From positions 868,001-932,000 of the forward strand of contig NZ_CP147243.1 in assembly GCF_037198285.1 (NCBI RefSeq): a stretch of DNA of 64,000 nt, in the 5' to 3' direction. Below the pieces are notes generated by a model. It worked only from the letters and a program-made list of their open reading frames with translations, did not search any database and was not told where the DNA came from. Made by a program: the position numbers and the translations under genes. The stretch is from Haladaptatus sp. DJG-WS-42. Lineage in GTDB: Archaea > Halobacteriota > Halobacteria > Halobacteriales > Halococcaceae. Below, one piece after another: positions 12,941 to 37,859 of this stretch; the stretch's first letter is position 1; every line of letters starts with the position of its first letter.

Positions 12941-13262
12941 TATCCGACCCTCCCGTCATGAGCTCGGGCACGTGGCTGTCTCGATTGGGCTGTCAGAAGC
13001 CACGCGGAGGGCTGCGGGGAGACAACGGCCGCAGTCGTGGCGGAGGTTGGCTGTCGGTTCATGGATGAATTGGATGAGTTCATTTGCATGGATGGGTGGG
13101 GCCAGTGGGCGACCCTTGAACTACCCTTCCGACTATGCCTCCCTTACTATACACCGGCTAAGCGGCCGTTTATTTATCATCTAAGCTTACCACTCGCGGG
13201 CGTGAGAGCGGCGTTTCATGAACAACGATGGCATTCAGGCCGCAAACTGTCCAAAAAAGCAG
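12941..13262 (-). other. glmS leader region (322 nt)
   Basis: It contains one copy of the surface-gene promoter element (13141-13162) and a leader of about 180 nt before glmS. A 49-codon minus-strand reading frame (13089 to 12940, starting MQMNSSNSSMNRQ) ends with TAA overlapping the glmS ATG as TAATG. The peptide is Ser/Thr/Ala/Arg-rich, unlike haloarchaeal proteins, so coding status is doubtful. Nothing else is recognisable. Confidence 0.4.
13141..13162 (-). promoter_or_regulatory. Surface-regulon element upstream of glmS
   Basis: Read on the minus strand: CTTA-GCCGGTG-TATAGTAA-GGG. The spacer is exactly 7 nt. The 8-mer departs from consensus at one base (G for A). It is the most distant copy from its gene, about 200 nt from the glmS start. 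Confidence 0.5.
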
Positions 13263-14693
13263 TCAGTCTTCGAGCTGTGATTTTGCGGCATCCGGCTCGT
13301 GACCGGAGAGCGTGACGATGTTGCCACGCCCGATACGGAAGCGGCTGATAGCGCCGTTTTCTTCCATCTTCGAGAGTTCGCGGCTGACTTTGGCCTTCGA
13401 CCAGCCCGACTCATCGACGATGTCCGTCTGTTTCATCTGCCCGCCGCGTTGGGTGAGCAACTGATTGATGAATTTATCAGGCGGAACCAGGTCTGCGTCT
13501 GGGATGGCCGGTTCGTCCGTCTCTACGGGTTCGGGGTCGGGGCCTGCGTCTGCGGCTTCTGCCGGAACGGCCGGACTGAGCGAGTCTTTGGCCGCGCCGA
13601 CCGGAATCACCTCTTCGCGTTGCCACCACGCGAGCCCGGCAATGCCACCGAGGCCAAGCAGTGTCCCGGTTCCGAGCATCCAAACGGTGAGACCGTTGAG
13701 TGGGTCTGTCCCCCAGGAATACTCAGTTTGGTCTGACAGTCCGTCGCCGTCGGTGTCTGTGATGAGCAGGCTCGTCCCCAGCCTCGATTCTAAGCCGTCG
13801 TTGAGCCCGTCACTGTCAGTATCTGCGTTGAGTGGGTCTGAATCGGTCTTCGCTTCGGTGGCGTCGTCGAGTCCATCGCTGTCGGTATCGACGCGCGTCG
13901 GGTCGGTGCCGAGCGACCGTTCTTCCCCGTCGGTCAGCCCGTCATTGTCCGTATCTGCGTCGAGTGGGTCGGTGACCTCTAACTCCTCACCGTCGGTGAC
14001 GCCATCACCGTCAGAGTCGGGGTTGAGCGGGTCTGTCCCGCGCTGGAGTTCGATGCCATCGCGGGCACCGTCATCGTCTGAATCGTCCTTGTTGGCGATG
14101 GTTTGGTACTGCGTGACCTCCTCACCGTCGGTGAGGCCGTCTTGGTCTGTATCAGAGGCGGTGTAGTCGAGGCCGAGTGCGACCTCCTTCTCGTTGGTCA
14201 GGCCGTCGTCATCCTCATCGCCGCCTTTCTGCATCACGTAAATCGGGATGGTTTTCGTGTCGAGGAGTTTGCGATCGAATGACTGGATGTTGTAGAGGTC
14301 GATTTTGAGGTCGTGTGGTCCCGTTGTCTGTGCACTGAGATTCGCCACGGACAACGACACCGAGCCTGCAGAGTTCTGTGTTGATTTGTCTCTACAGGCG
14401 AGTTCCGTTGTCGTCCCGTCGCCAGATTCGACTTGTGACAGACAGATGCGATAGCTCTGGGTGTCTGCACTCGGCGTAAAGGTCACGTTAACGGCCTGTG
14501 CATCCGCTTGCCAGACGTACGTCGTCCCGTTTTTCGTTTCGACGATCCCTGCGCCGGTGTGCGTTACGTTCGTTATGCTAGCGGCGGCTTCTTGCTGATT
14601 GGTCGTGGCAACGGCCCCCCCGGCAAAGCCAGAGAAAAGAACGGCACAGGCGATAAAAAGCAACACGACGTGTCGTACTGACTCAGTTTTCAT
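13263..14693 (-). CDS. Membrane protein with extracellular calcium-type repeats and cytoplasmic winged helix
   Basis: A 476-residue protein with unusual architecture. It has a signal peptide (about residues 1-30), a beta-rich exported domain (30-150), and then seven or more thrombospondin type 3-like acidic repeats of the form DTDxDGLxDGxE (about 156-324), which bind Ca2+ in known proteins. A single membrane helix lies at about 333-356. An Ala/Pro/Glu linker leads to a C-terminal MarR/DUF7343-like winged helix (about 401-465: MKQTDIVDESGWSKAKVSRELSKMEENGAISR). The topology fits an ion- or surface-sensing one-component regulator. It lies between glmS and a second membrane-bound winged-helix gene. 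Confidence 0.82.
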   Translation of the reverse strand: MKTESVRHVVLLFIACAVLFSGFAGGAVATTNQQEAAASITNVTHTGAGIVETKNGTTYVWQADAQAVNVTFTPSADTQSYRICLSQVESGDGTTTELACRDKSTQNSAGSVSLSVANLSAQTTGPHDLKIDLYNIQSFDRKLLDTKTIPIYVMQKGGDEDDDGLTNEKEVALGLDYTASDTDQDGLTDGEEVTQYQTIANKDDSDDDGARDGIELQRGTDPLNPDSDGDGVTDGEELEVTDPLDADTDNDGLTDGEERSLGTDPTRVDTDSDGLDDATEAKTDSDPLNADTDSDGLNDGLESRLGTSLLITDTDGDGLSDQTEYSWGTDPLNGLTVWMLGTGTLLGLGGIAGLAWWQREEVIPVGAAKDSLSPAVPAEAADAGPDPEPVETDEPAIPDADLVPPDKFINQLLTQRGGQMKQTDIVDESGWSKAKVSRELSKMEENGAISRFRIGRGNIVTLSGHEPDAAKSQLED

Positions 14694-15065
14694 ACCCGGG
14701 CTGCCCTCCAGCGAAACAGCCTGCCCGCAGACTGCCTCGACGTGGCGTTACCAGCGAAAACCCGGCGCTCTTGGCGAGTAGCCAACCCGTCCAGGAGTGC
14801 CGTGAATTGTGGTTCATTGTGTTTGTAATCGCGTCCACGCAACGGTGATTGATTGGCCCCTAAATGTACCGTGCCCACGACGGAACCGTTTTATTACTGG
14901 TTCAAAGGTGGTGAGAGGTTAATATATTTCGTCTGGAAGCCCCAACCGTCACAGATTACAGATGGTCTGTTTCTCGTATTAGTCTTTTGGAAAATATAAG
15001 GAAACGCGAATGTAATGATTAGTAGATACGAAAGCGAAGAAAGTCGGCGTGAAAACGGAGCGCAG
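14694..15065. other. AT-rich intergenic region (372 nt)
   Basis: It is richer in A/T than its surroundings and lies between two minus-strand genes. A weakly similar promoter (minus strand, AGTAATAAAACGG at about 14898-14886) lies 190 nt upstream of the 14693 start. A 62-codon minus-strand frame (14878-14690, GTG start) ends on the next gene's ATG, but its Arg-rich composition argues against coding. An A/T run GGAAAATATAAGG at about 14991-15003 may be another promoter or terminator. Confidence 0.35.
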
Positions 15066-15704
15066 TTACGCAATTCGGGCCATGACCGCCTGCCCTGCCG
15101 CACTCAAGGCGAACGCGGTGACGACGAGGACAACTATCGCAAACTGCGGAATAATCGAGGCGGGAATGAGGCCTGCAGAGGAGGCAAGAAGCGTGAGTGT
15201 GCTCAGCCCTGAGAGGCCGAGGTAGTAGTCGCTCCACTCAAACTCGTAGTCACCGAGCGGTGCGGTTGACGAGTCGGTCTCAACTGGAGCGGTGGTGTCA
15301 GCGTCGGCCTCGGCTGCGAGTTGGGGGATGTCGATGTACTCACAGAGGTCTGCGACGTGGGGCGTCGTCTCGATGAGACCACGGCTCTGGTTGTATTCGA
15401 TGACGCCTTCGTCGTCGAGTTTGGGGAGGTGGGTCTGGTAGAGGGCGATGTAGACGCGCTGGCGCTCGTCAGAGTGCAGCTGTTGGACGGTGGTGTCGTT
15501 TTCCCACGCCGCAACCTGCTCTGCCACGTCGCGCATCTCGACGGTGCCCGTCTGCTCGTTCAGGTACGCGAGAGCCATGCGTCGGCGTTCGTTCTGGAGG
15601 AGGTGGAACGTGTTGTCTTTCGAGAGGGGGGTGACGGTTTCTGTGGGGTCGCCGCCAAATTCCGACGAGAGAGCGGCGTCGGTGTTCTGGGGTTGGGTGC
15701 TCAT
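15066..15704 (-). CDS. Membrane-anchored winged-helix protein (DUF7344-like)
   Basis: A 212-residue protein. Residues about 25-125 form a winged-helix domain of the haloarchaeal DUF7344 type (FHLLQNERRRMALAYLNEQTGTVEMRDVAEQVAAWE, then YQTHLPKLDDEGVIEYNQSRGLIETTPHV). An acidic Thr-rich linker follows, then two C-terminal membrane helices (about 158-205). It is probably a membrane-tethered DNA-binding regulator. It is divergent from the nucleotide-sugar dehydrogenase operon, making that operon a candidate target (inference). Confidence 0.8.
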   Translation of the reverse strand: MSTQPQNTDAALSSEFGGDPTETVTPLSKDNTFHLLQNERRRMALAYLNEQTGTVEMRDVAEQVAAWENDTTVQQLHSDERQRVYIALYQTHLPKLDDEGVIEYNQSRGLIETTPHVADLCEYIDIPQLAAEADADTTAPVETDSSTAPLGDYEFEWSDYYLGLSGLSTLTLLASSAGLIPASIIPQFAIVVLVVTAFALSAAGQAVMARIA

Positions 15705-16017
15705 GGTTACTCCACTCTACCGGTGGTTCCACGATAAAGGGGGCCGGTGATTGCAGTAGGTTACGTCGTGTTTCAAGCGTTTAATTCGGTTGTAAAACCG
15801 TTTCTAAGCGTTCAAAACACCAGGATTCGAGACAACCTGATTTTAACCGGCAAATATTGCACTGTTCGTGCGCAGGAACGGCTTACGGAGGGGCAAAGCC
15901 GCGGTAAGCAATCACACGGTCAGCGCCTTAGCTGCCGTATAATAAGGAGGTTAGCCAGTTGAGCGAAGTACAGAGCCCGACTGCTGGGGACACCCCCGGC
16001 ACGGGAGATCGAGAACC
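15705..16017. other. Divergent control region of the glycan operon (313 nt)
   Basis: It separates the DUF7344-like gene from the dehydrogenase/glycosyltransferase operon. It holds one surface-regulon element (15927-15947) immediately followed by AGGAGG. A 20-codon TTG frame at 15959 is noted but probably lies upstream of the transcription start. An A/T-rich stretch at about 15760-15860 may hold the divergent promoter. Confidence 0.45.
15927..15947 (+). promoter_or_regulatory. Surface-regulon element of the glycan operon
   Basis: CTTA-GCTGCCG-TATAATAA-GG, with the invariant 7-nt spacer. The 8-mer ends 72 nt before the small ORF at 16018, so this transcript probably has a leader of about 50 nt. 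Confidence 0.65.
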
Positions 16018-26869: not shown

Positions 26870-29109
26870 TGATTCTTACCAGACTCCTCTCTACCTTTAT
26901 TATCGGCTCCGTAAGCGCCGTCATCGCCGCGTCGTATGCGACGCAGTCCCACTCCTAACGTGGAGAGCCCAATGCCCACCGGGAGGGCGAATCCGGCTGT
27001 CGAGTTCGTGCTGGTGGTCGACTCGGTCGTTGATTCGGTCGTTGTCGAATTCACCAGTTCGGTCGTCGTTGTGGTGGTCGAAGTCGTCGTCGTTGTCGTC
27101 GTGGAAGTCGTGGTCGTCGTTGGCTCTTCCGTCGTCGTTGTCGTCGGCTCCTCTGTGGTCGTGGTTGTCGTCGGCTCTTCCGTAGTTGTTGTCGTCGGCT
27201 CCTCTGTGGTCGAGGTCGTCGGTTCCTCTGTCGTCGTGGTCGTACTCGTCGTTGGCTCTTCGGTGGTCGCCGTGGAAGTGGTGGCACTCTCAGTCGTCGT
27301 AGTCGAGGCTGTCGTACCGCCACCGTCGTCCGTTTGTGTGGTAGCTTCGGTCGGCTCTGTAGTCGCCGTGCTGTCGGTCTGCGTCGGCGTCTGCGTGGCT
27401 GCCGTACTCGTGTCGTTGGTCTGGTTCAGCCCGGGCACGTTCACGTCTGGGCTGTCCACCGAGCCGAGGTCTGGCCCCATGACGGCGAAGGCAATCCCCG
27501 AGATGAACAGCACCATGCCAATGAACACGAGGACGTACTGGAGCGAGTCGTTGCCGAACATCGACCCACTGCTCTCGTAGCGGTCGCGCAGCCGAACAAC
27601 TGGGCGCGCAAGGCTGCCGGGCAGCGCAGACGAGAGGATGTCGAGCACCTCGCCGATGCCGAGAGCGCCCGTGACGAACGCCAAGGTGAGGAAGATGACG
27701 AGGCCGACCGGCGGCACGACGATGAGCGTCACGATGTCGCCAGAGATGAACGGCACGAGGGTCTGCGGGATGTAACTCGGCAGCGCGAGGATGGGAATGG
27801 CAGCGAGGCCGGTCGTGAGAGCGATTCGGCCGAGACGCGCATCAGAAAGCGGGTTAAACCCGATCTTCCGCGCAGACCAGATGTGAAACAGGAACATCGA
27901 CGCGTAGCCGATACTCGTTGCAATCGCCGCGCCGTGCATCCCGTACATCGGAATGAGGACGATGTTTAATCCAAGGTTGATGACCGCGGCGGTCGCCGTG
28001 GCGATAATCGGCAGCTTCAGGTCGCCTTTCCCCTGTCCGATGGCGAGGATCGGGCGCGCAACGGCGAACCCGAGTGCTCCAGGAAGGAGGAGCAAGAGCG
28101 GTTCGACGGCGGGCGTCGCTGCCTCACCGAAGTACACCGGCACCGCGATGTGGGCAATCGAGTAGAGCCCGAGTGCCATCACGGCGGTGAGCAGGAGGGT
28201 GTACCGCGTCGCGCGTGCCGCGAGTTCTGAAATCTGTCCAGTCCGGTTTTGCGACCACATCTTCGAGGTCGAGTGAACGAATACCATCTGTATCGAGGTG
28301 GGGACGAACCACAGGAACTCAGCGAGTTTGAGCGCCGCTTTGTAGTGGCCAACCTGCGTGCTGTCGGTGAGCGCCCCGAGCAGGAGGATGTCCGTGTGAT
28401 AAAGCGACATCAGACAGAAGATGAGGACAATCGAGAGCGAATTGAACGCGACCAGTTCGCGCCACGGGAAGCCCCGTGGGGTGCGCCGAACCACGTTCAA
28501 CAGCGTGCTCTTGCGGTGGACGACGATGAATCCGAGAAACATCACGAGCGCACTGCCGAGCACCTGTCCGGCAAGCGCGCCCATGACCCCATAACCGTAG
28601 TAGACGGCGGGGATGGCGATGACGACAAACGTGACTTCATACAGGATTTTGAGCGGTTCAGAGTAGCGTTCGAGGCCGAATCCCATGAGCGTCCGTCTGA
28701 CGAACGTCCGAAACTGCGCGACGATGACGAGCACCGCGAGGACGTAGAAGTACGGAACGAACTCCGCGGAGAAAAAGCGCGCGACGAGACCACTTTCTGC
28801 GAGGAGAACGAGCACACCCGCACCGGCCAGCGCGAGCACGAGCCCCATGCGGAAGTAAAAGCCGATGACGTGGCCACTCCAGTTGTCGAACGTACGGTCT
28901 TCGGGGATGTACTTGCGCACGCCGTCTGCGACCCCTGAGCTCACGAAAATCATGAACATCATGAAGATCGAGAGCACGAAGGCGTACTCACCATACTGGG
29001 CGGGGCCCATGAGACGATAGAGGATGGGCGTCGTCGCGAGTCCAAGGACGAGGATGAAAACCTTCGACCCGAAAATCGAGAGAAAGCCGCTTAGAATACT
29101 ACGTTGCAC
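26866..29109 (-). CDS. Wzx-type polysaccharide flippase with Thr-rich stalk
   Basis: A 747-residue protein. Residues 1-490 are a MATE/Wzx-like flippase with 12-14 helices (IFGSKVFILVLGLATTPILYRLMGPAQYGEYAF), moving lipid-linked glycans across the membrane. A further helix lies at about 523-543, then a mucin-like Thr/Glu/Pro region (about 560-700) with repeats of EEPTTTTT, then a last hydrophobic segment (about 703-722) and a basic tail. Typical Wzx proteins are about 450-500 residues, so the stalk is an addition. The start is GTG at 29109. Confidence 0.88.
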   Translation of the reverse strand: MQRSILSGFLSIFGSKVFILVLGLATTPILYRLMGPAQYGEYAFVLSIFMMFMIFVSSGVADGVRKYIPEDRTFDNWSGHVIGFYFRMGLVLALAGAGVLVLLAESGLVARFFSAEFVPYFYVLAVLVIVAQFRTFVRRTLMGFGLERYSEPLKILYEVTFVVIAIPAVYYGYGVMGALAGQVLGSALVMFLGFIVVHRKSTLLNVVRRTPRGFPWRELVAFNSLSIVLIFCLMSLYHTDILLLGALTDSTQVGHYKAALKLAEFLWFVPTSIQMVFVHSTSKMWSQNRTGQISELAARATRYTLLLTAVMALGLYSIAHIAVPVYFGEAATPAVEPLLLLLPGALGFAVARPILAIGQGKGDLKLPIIATATAAVINLGLNIVLIPMYGMHGAAIATSIGYASMFLFHIWSARKIGFNPLSDARLGRIALTTGLAAIPILALPSYIPQTLVPFISGDIVTLIVVPPVGLVIFLTLAFVTGALGIGEVLDILSSALPGSLARPVVRLRDRYESSGSMFGNDSLQYVLVFIGMVLFISGIAFAVMGPDLGSVDSPDVNVPGLNQTNDTSTAATQTPTQTDSTATTEPTEATTQTDDGGGTTASTTTTESATTSTATTEEPTTSTTTTTEEPTTSTTEEPTTTTTEEPTTTTTTEEPTTTTTEEPTTTTTSTTTTTTTSTTTTTTELVNSTTTESTTESTTSTNSTAGFALPVGIGLSTLGVGLRRIRRGDDGAYGADNKGREESGKNQ
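26894..26915 (-). promoter_or_regulatory. Surface-regulon element inside the flippase 3' end
   Basis: Minus strand: CTTA-CGGAGCC-GATAATAA-AGG, spacer 7 nt. The 8-mer ends 27 nt before the DUF1616 ATG at 26869. It lies in coding sequence for the last residues of the upstream gene, giving DUF1616/DUF457 their own promoter. Confidence 0.65.
27040..27300 (-). repeat. Thr-rich low-complexity coding repeat
   Basis: Imperfect tandem units encode EEPTTTTT/EEPTTSTT in the C-terminal stalk of the flippase. The DNA is built from GTCGTC/GTTGTC steps with scattered substitutions, mostly at third positions. Such repeats change length easily. In the protein they form a likely O-glycosylated stalk. Confidence 0.85.
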
Positions 29110-29203: not shown

Positions 29204-29224
29204 GTTTATTATACGGGGGGTAAG
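29204..29224 (-). promoter_or_regulatory. Surface-regulon element of the flippase gene
   Basis: Minus strand: CTTA-CCCCCCG-TATAATAA, spacer 7 nt. The 8-mer lies 96 nt before the GTG at 29109. A 28-codon frame beginning MNRRTSQVCQ at 29177 overlaps the GTG in another phase; it may be a leader ORF. Confidence 0.6.
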
Positions 29225-36415: not shown

Positions 36416-36847
36416 GTAGAGTGCCTATGGCGCTACCCCTTTTATTATCAGTGGGCTAAACCAGTCAGCTATTCTGGCTGTCGCTCAGGGTGAGCGGATG
36501 CGTGGGAGGTGAGCGGCCGGGACGTGGGTGCACACGCGAACCCGGGCAAAGTTCGCAGGTGGAGCGTCCGACCAGCCCACGTGACAGAAGTAACAGCCAC
36601 GCAGTTGCGAACACGACGTACCGGGCAGATACGTCGCCTCGCGTCGCAGTAGGTGGCGTGAACACGTGGTTCAGAGCCACCGCCCGCGTCAACGCCACTG
36701 GCGCGAGAGAGATGTACGCGGACACCCCGGGCAAAGGCGTCTGGTACAGGCGCGTCCAGACGGGCGTTGGATGGCGGGTTTATTTCAAACCGCATCAACC
36801 AGTTAATTACGGGACTGTATAAGTATTACTGCCGCGTGTCGAGTCGC
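36416..36847. other. Intergenic region between MoxR and DsbA-like genes (432 nt)
   Basis: It holds the MoxR promoter element and several inverted repeats: CGCTCA-GGG-TGAGCG at 36482-36496 and GCGAAC/GTTCGC at about 36536-36556. Three overlapping frames of 89-110 codons exist (36465-36734 minus, 36469-36798 minus, 36490-36822 plus). None has haloarchaeal acidic composition or a recognisable family; the 89-codon minus frame has one hydrophobic stretch and is the least unlikely. Confidence 0.4.
36437..36460 (-). promoter_or_regulatory. Surface-regulon element of the MoxR gene
   Basis: Minus strand: TTTA-GCCCACT-GATAATAA, then AAGGG; spacer 7 nt. The 8-mer ends 26 nt before ATG 36415. Confidence 0.7.
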
Positions 36848-37715: not shown

Positions 37716-37738
37716 CCCATTATTATCCGTCAGCTAAG
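37716..37738 (-). promoter_or_regulatory. Surface-regulon element of the DsbA-like gene
   Basis: Minus strand: CTTA-GCTGACG-GATAATAA-TGG, spacer 7 nt. Its CTTAGCTG half is identical to that of the glycan-operon copy. The 8-mer ends 26 nt before ATG 37693. Confidence 0.75.
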
Positions 37739-37837: not shown

Positions 37838-37859
37838 TTTAGGCCCCAGATAATAAGGG
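37838..37859 (+). promoter_or_regulatory. Surface-regulon element of the hydrolase lipoprotein gene
   Basis: TTTA-GGCCCCA-GATAATAA-GGG, spacer 7 nt. The 8-mer ends 25 nt before ATG 37882. With the previous copy it drives a divergent pair, 100 nt apart. Confidence 0.75.

What the first reader, a model, noticed from the sequence alone, without database searches (positions are those of the whole stretch)
13263..15704. Two adjacent membrane-bound winged-helix proteins, one with outside calcium-type repeats
The 13263-14693 product has a signal peptide, at least seven DxDxDG-type thrombospondin-3 repeats, one membrane helix and a C-terminal winged helix. The 15066-15704 product has the reverse order: winged helix first, then two membrane helices. 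Both lie between glmS and the glycan operon. A one-component receptor that senses Ca2+/salt or surface-layer state outside and touches DNA inside would suit control of the YTTA-element regulon. The topology is inferred from sequence.
Basis: partly seen in the sequence, partly recalled or inferred. Interest (0 to 1): 0.75.

Follow-up and report, generated by a model that had tools for sequence, protein, structure and literature searches.

The report
Paired membrane regulators of surface genes
In salt-loving archaea, two neighbouring genes encode DNA-binding proteins anchored in the cell membrane, one with a long calcium-type arm outside the cell; the pair is kept together across 14 genera, and one of the two is found in the same genomes as a distinctive promoter signal in front of cell-surface sugar genes, which suggests a route from the cell surface to gene control that can now be tested.

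Summary
Window 13263-14693 (minus strand) encodes a signal peptide, a beta-sandwich with a conserved cysteine pair, eight TSP3 repeats, one membrane helix and a C-terminal winged helix (DUF7343). Window 15066-15704 (minus) encodes a winged helix (DUF7344) followed by two membrane helices. N-glycosylation sequons sit almost only on the predicted outer side. The genes form a conserved pair: 32 of 40 fetched wHTH-bearing TSP3 homologues (14 genera) have a DUF7344 gene within two genes, often between glmS and ugd; none of four homologues lacking the winged helix does. The 'YTTA element' is real: YTTA-N8-ATARTAA, spacing-specific (85 hits versus 0-4 at other spacings). Its number per genome follows the full-length DUF7344-2TM protein across 292 haloarchaeal genomes, also within genera, not the TSP3 receptor as such. 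Direct binding, Ca2+ sensing and protein contact are not shown. A second operator, tandem YGMAACRGTY repeats before DUF7344 genes, leaves open which protein binds which site. New variant of known membrane-bound one-component regulators (ArnR-like; TTRs).

The parts
13263..14693 (-). TSP3 receptor gene: signal peptide, beta-sandwich, eight TSP3 repeats, TM helix, DUF7343 winged helix (476 aa)
14601..14693 (-). signal peptide (residues 1-31; cleavage after AVA predicted by eye only)
   Evidence: hydropathy
14232..14579 (-). extracellular beta-sandwich N-domain (residues 39-154), conserved W61, C84, C100; all 4 sequons of the protein lie here
13698..14222 (-). eight TSP3 calcium-type repeats (residues 158-332)
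13617..13691 (-). single membrane helix (residues 335-359)
13308..13481 (-). DUF7343 winged helix (residues 405-462)
15066..15704 (-). DUF7344-2TM gene: N-terminal winged helix and two C-terminal membrane helices (212 aa)
15366..15620 (-). DUF7344 winged helix (residues 29-113)
15072..15239 (-). membrane hairpin (helices 156-176 and 187-211)
13144..13162 (-). YTTA element in the glmS promoter, CTTAGCCGGTGTATAGTAA
15927..15945 (+). YTTA element in the ugd/glycan-operon promoter, CTTAGCTGCCGTATAATAA
25216..25234 (-). YTTA element before a GT2 glycosyltransferase gene
26897..26915 (-). YTTA element before the DUF1616 gene
29206..29224 (-). YTTA element before the polysaccharide flippase gene
36442..36460 (-). 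YTTA element before a MoxR-type AAA gene
37720..37738 (-). YTTA element before a thioredoxin-like lipoprotein gene
37838..37856 (+). YTTA element before a lipoprotein-like gene
15755..15815 (-). degenerate GMAAC-type repeat region upstream of DUF7344-2TM (TGAAAC at -71; full tandem repeats only in other genera)
   Evidence: weak in the window itself

Best explanation
The two genes encode a membrane-tethered regulatory module for cell-surface glycan and envelope genes. DUF7344-2TM, a small winged-helix protein held by a membrane hairpin, is the core regulator: it, or a factor that works only with it, acts at promoters with YTTA-N8-ATARTAA, where YTTA lies eight bases upstream of the TATA box. 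The TSP3 protein is an accessory receptor. Its beta-sandwich is held away from the membrane by a Ca2+-stiffened arm of 3 to 11 repeats among homologues, reads the state of the surface layer, glycan or divalent ions, and passes it through a single membrane helix to a cytoplasmic winged helix next to DUF7344-2TM. Shown: architecture, conserved pairing, a real promoter element, and its co-occurrence with DUF7344-2TM. Inferred: DNA binding, signal, contact between the two proteins, and sign of control. The position of YTTA just upstream of BRE/TATA fits an activator, but the element's 3' half covers the TATA box, so repression is not excluded.
For: Pairing: 32 of 40 wHTH-bearing homologues in 14 genera have DUF7344 within two genes, in both gene orders and once divergent; 0 of 4 homologues without wHTH do (loci). 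The pair lies between glmS and ugd in several families. Element: 17 sites versus 2 reversed control in this genome, 8 of them in the 64 kb window; N8 85 hits versus reversed 1, other spacings 0-4; glmS/ugd elements conserved in other genera; most sites, including several far from the locus, conserved at orthologous genes in two congeners, often 44-51 nt before the start codon. Co-occurrence: 85 genomes with DUF7344-2TM average 7.1 sites, 207 without average 1.1 (control 1.9 and 1.2); 264 held-out genomes p = 9e-20; stratified by genus over 15 genera p = 5e-5. Topology. DUF7344-2TM stays with the element where the TSP3 protein is absent.
Against: Genus g10 has pair and DUF7344-2TM but little element (1.7 versus 1.0 control), though its DUF7344s form a separate clade with g24/g26. 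A different tandem repeat, YGMAACRGTY, lies before DUF7344-2TM genes in 62% of cases versus 6% elsewhere, also in g10, so DUF7344 might bind that instead. In likely recipients of the island most sites lie inside it, so co-inheritance explains part of the correlation. No binding or expression data.
Confidence: 0.5

Rival explanations
1. The TSP3 receptor itself binds YTTA, and DUF7344-2TM is only its helper.
For: TSP3-pair genomes outside g10 have the highest counts, mean 10.0 versus 1.3 control; the pair sits between two YTTA promoters.
Against: 53 genomes with DUF7344-2TM and no detected TSP3 pair still average 6.4 sites, as in the f4 genomes and in G019/G099, where the locus keeps DUF7344 and the element without TSP3; g10 has TSP3 and little element.
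Confidence: 0.12
2. Hitch-hiking: the YTTA promoters and the regulator genes travel together in a glycan island, and YTTA is read by something else, such as a TFB variant or a PadR-type regulator that is itself a YTTA target.
For: Sites cluster in 40-65 kb islands in G291, G218, G111 and G141; DUF7344 rows of G291 and G218 nest within the g23 clade, as if transferred; a short PadR-like gene is a YTTA target.
Against: In the window's genus many conserved sites lie far from the island, and in G291 a second site cluster flanks its second DUF7344 gene. TFIIB domain counts do not differ between element-bearing and element-free relatives in g23, g7 and g15, and only slightly in g68; specific TFB paralogues were not compared.
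Confidence: 0.25
3. DUF7344-2TM binds the YGMAACRGTY tandem repeats before its own gene (autoregulation) and controls the surface genes only indirectly.
For: GMAACNGTY in 33 of 53 DUF7344-2TM upstream regions versus 49 of 869 others, reversed control 0; a 10-bp period; kept in g10 and in TSP3-less g12.
Against: Few repeats in several f4 genomes and a degenerate copy in the window; YTTA targets lack the repeat, so the link to them would need another factor.
Confidence: 0.3
4. The winged helices are used for protein contacts, not DNA, and the proteins are structural surface components.
For: Winged helices can mediate protein contacts; Foldseek hits for DUF7344 are weak and include non-regulators; four TSP3 homologues lack the wHTH.
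Against: The wHTH is the best conserved part (WSK[SA]KVSR; QRVYI.LYQ.HL), DUF7343 resembles IclR, MarR and Crp DNA-binding domains, and the promoter element co-occurs with DUF7344-2TM.
Confidence: 0.08

Closest known systems
ArnR/ArnR1 of Sulfolobus acidocaldarius (PMC6396743)
   Same: N-terminal HTH, two C-terminal membrane helices, one-component, controls surface structures through upstream promoter boxes
   Different: ArnR has a putative HAMP and a sensory domain; DUF7344-2TM has only a short linker. DUF7344 is not found in the S. acidocaldarius control genome. No phosphorylation evidence here
Transmembrane transcription regulators, TTRs (PMC10269533)
   Same: Both proteins meet the definition: predicted DNA-binding domain plus membrane helix
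   Different: A TSP3 arm with C-terminal wHTH, and two adjacent TTRs as a conserved pair, are not described in the passages read
Haloferax volcanii 'transmembrane glycoprotein/HTH domain proteins' HVO_1944 and HVO_0306 (PMC8241124)
   Same: Secreted membrane glycoproteins with an HTH domain; N-glycosylation of HVO_1944 was measured, which supports this kind of topology in a similar class
   Different: No TSP3 arm, partner gene or regulon is reported in the passages read; homology to the window protein was not tested
ToxR/ToxS and TcpP/TcpH (own knowledge; TcpP/TcpH named in the abstract of PMC11323476)
   Same: Membrane-bound winged-helix regulator with an adjacent membrane partner
   Different: Opposite domain order in the TSP3 receptor; here both partners carry a winged helix; no sequence relation tested

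Membership tests
DUF7343 (PF24034) | score over the curated cut-off | tested here: met
   80.6 bits versus 27.6
TSP3_bac (PF18884) | repeats over the curated cut-off | tested here: met
   102.6 bits, 7 stretches; 8 by pattern
TSP3_bac (PF18884) | Ca2+ actually bound | not testable with these tools
   DxDxDG ligand pattern complete in all eight; no binding data
DUF7344 (PF24035) | score over the curated cut-off | tested here: met
   109.1 bits versus 27.8
Transmembrane transcription regulator (TTR) | predicted DNA-binding domain plus at least one membrane helix | tested here: met
   both proteins
Transmembrane transcription regulator (TTR) | acts on promoters from the membrane | not testable with these tools
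   only co-occurrence with a promoter element
ArnR | N-terminal HTH and two C-terminal membrane helices | tested here: met
   DUF7344-2TM
ArnR | HAMP and sensory domain between HTH and membrane helices | tested here: not met
   no Pfam hit there; linker of about 40 residues, low confidence
ArnR | sequence membership | tested here: not met
   DUF7344 rings in no control genome except Haloferax volcanii; S. acidocaldarius is among the controls
ToxR-type regulator | OmpR-type wHTH N-terminal in the cytoplasm, periplasmic C-terminus | tested here: not met
   TSP3 receptor has the wHTH at the C-terminus, DUF7343 type

The most novel reading that the evidence does not exclude
A two-protein outside-in switch of haloarchaea: an extracellular receptor on a Ca2+-stiffened arm of variable length reads surface-layer or divalent-ion state and, through its own cytoplasmic winged helix, sets the activity of a membrane-hairpin winged-helix partner that reads a dedicated promoter element (YTTA-N8-TATA) in front of surface-glycan, envelope and export genes. 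The partner and its promoter class move between genera together.
Probability: 0.3. Interest if true: 0.8.

Novelty: new variant of a known kind. Interest (0 to 1): 0.62.

Why it matters
No regulator of surface glycan or surface-layer glycosylation genes in haloarchaea turned up in the papers searched here. This locus gives a named candidate regulator, a named receptor, a promoter element with exact spacing, and a set of matched genomes with and without it. Control of the archaeal envelope from outside can then be tested with two deletions and one reporter.

Tried and rejected
PDB sequence search of the receptor: no hit. Foldseek of DUF7344-2TM: no hit at E <= 0.001. Foldseek of the receptor: beta-sandwiches of many kinds (NPC2, CTLA-4, GH2), fold level only. 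No papers for DUF7343/7344/7345 or for TSP3 in haloarchaea. TFB copy number as cause: no difference in three of four genera. A shared repeat element inside the window's own intergenic spacers around the pair: none of note. TSP3 receptor as sole YTTA reader: rejected as above.

Full report
Observation. Both genes are real and lie on the minus strand. The first product has a signal peptide, a beta-sandwich, eight TSP3 repeats, a membrane helix, a disordered linker and a DUF7343 winged helix. The second is a DUF7344 winged helix followed by two membrane helices, the first only weakly hydrophobic. TSP3 repeats occur nowhere else in this 2.78 Mb genome. The beta-sandwich has two cysteines and a tryptophan conserved across the family, and its fold matches Ig-like and ML-type sandwiches. 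Over 25 homologues, sequons are 12 times denser on the predicted outside than inside. In Haloferax volcanii, proteins annotated as transmembrane glycoprotein/HTH domain protein are reported as glycoproteins (PMC8241124). The outside-in topology is therefore well supported, though only by prediction and analogy.

A conserved pair. The receptor's architecture is spread over the class. In fetched neighbourhoods, 32 of 40 homologues with a winged helix have a DUF7344 gene within two genes, in 14 genera; DUF7344 lies upstream in 21 cases (one of them divergent) and downstream in 11. With about four DUF7344 genes in a genome of this size, chance would give roughly 1% (my estimate). Change of order with kept linkage argues for a functional tie. 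Four homologues that lack the winged helix have no DUF7344 neighbour. The eight unpaired ones are mostly short versions, several near uvrC. The pair often sits between glmS and ugd; some lineages have it elsewhere.

The YTTA element. Comparing the glmS and ugd promoters across three congeners and the window's promoters gives YTTA-N8-ATARTAA. This genome has 17 sites against 2 for the reversed pattern; eight by the strict pattern are in the window, not ten. In 1.31 Mb of fetched loci the N8 spacing gives 85 hits, the reversed pattern 1, other spacings 0-4; these loci were chosen around the pair, so the count is not a genome average. Of 186 ATARTAA copies there, 119 have NTTA at the exact position. 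Many sites start 44-51 nt before the start codon, which would put ATARTAA at the TATA-box position of a leaderless transcript and YTTA just upstream of the BRE. Targets include glmS, ugd, a GT2, a DUF1616 protein, a flippase, a MoxR ATPase, lipoproteins, a PadR-like protein and a mannosyltransferase-like membrane protein. Fourteen of the 17 sites recur before the orthologous gene in G124, including distant ones.

Which gene goes with the element. In 28 genomes, those rich in the element had a DUF7344 match running through the membrane helices at E <= 1e-35, and those without had mostly domain-level matches. With that threshold fixed, the other 264 genomes gave means of 6.8 versus 1.1 sites (Mann-Whitney p = 9e-20); permutation within 15 genera gave p = 5e-5, the floor of 20,000 shuffles. 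Contrasts within genera are sharp: in g23, 10-16 sites in seven genomes with the pair against 1-2 in six without; in g7, 12 in G291 and 5 in G278 against 0-2 in the others; in g15, 19 in G273 against 0-5; in g68, 5-7 against 0. These are not fully independent, and horizontal transfer is visible. Genomes with DUF7344-2TM but no detected TSP3 pair keep the element (mean 6.4), and their DUF7344-2TM often lies among asnB, DUF1616 and DUF2206-like glycan genes whose promoters carry it. So DUF7344-2TM, not the TSP3 receptor, is the constant companion. Genus g10 is the clear exception; its DUF7344s belong to a separate supported clade.

A complication. DUF7344-2TM genes are preceded by tandem 10-bp repeats YGMAACRGTY: GMAACNGTY in 33 of 53 against 49 of 869 other genes, reversed control zero. 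It occurs also in g10 and in TSP3-less g12. DUF7344 may bind this repeat, YTTA or both; sequence cannot decide. In G276, where the receptor gene has no DUF7344 neighbour, the repeat lies before the receptor gene itself.

Mechanism. Best reading: a membrane-anchored regulator with an optional outside receptor, working like ArnR in Sulfolobus but not a member of that family. The variable number of repeats (about 3-11) suggests a spacer or arm. Ca2+ sensing is plausible from the complete DxDxDG ligands but untested. The sign of control is open.

Limits. Gene calls come from a simple codon-usage caller of my own. Motif counts were transcribed. Threshold choice and phylogeny affect p-values. TSP3 absence in the 53 genomes rests on the class search, which can miss divergent copies. 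The consensus and the pattern YTTA-N8-ATARTAA were derived in this genus before the class-wide count, but the DUF7344 threshold was set after seeing 28 genomes; only the 264 others are a fair test.

Noticed in passing
upstream of DUF7344-2TM genes, e.g. L080:11150-11220, L118:4915-4945, L181:8360-8420; G000:C1:2388310-2388355: Tandem 10-bp direct repeats YGMAACRGTY, a second candidate operator specific to these genes, perhaps autoregulation.
   Followed up: partly
L091, L094, L110, L111: Homologues with N-domain and TSP3 arm but no winged helix; three of them (L094, L110, L111) are directly followed by a gene for an exported protein of about 820 aa.
   Followed up: no
L097, L104, L105, L132: Short receptor versions (3-4 repeats, DUF7343) beside uvrC-like genes with no DUF7344 neighbour, in genomes with little or no YTTA element.
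   Followed up: no
G000:C1:2387726-2389035 (L101, L150): YTTA element before a small Gln/Gly-rich membrane protein reading frame, just upstream of a DUF7344-2TM paralogue (55% identical to the window copy).
   Followed up: partly
L134 (G000:C1:314526): A short PadR-like regulator gene has a conserved YTTA promoter in all three congeners; similar genes lie near the pair in L124 and L187.
   Followed up: no
G291:C1:975325-983873: Second cluster of YTTA elements flanking a second DUF7344-2TM gene, outside the main glycan island.
   Followed up: no
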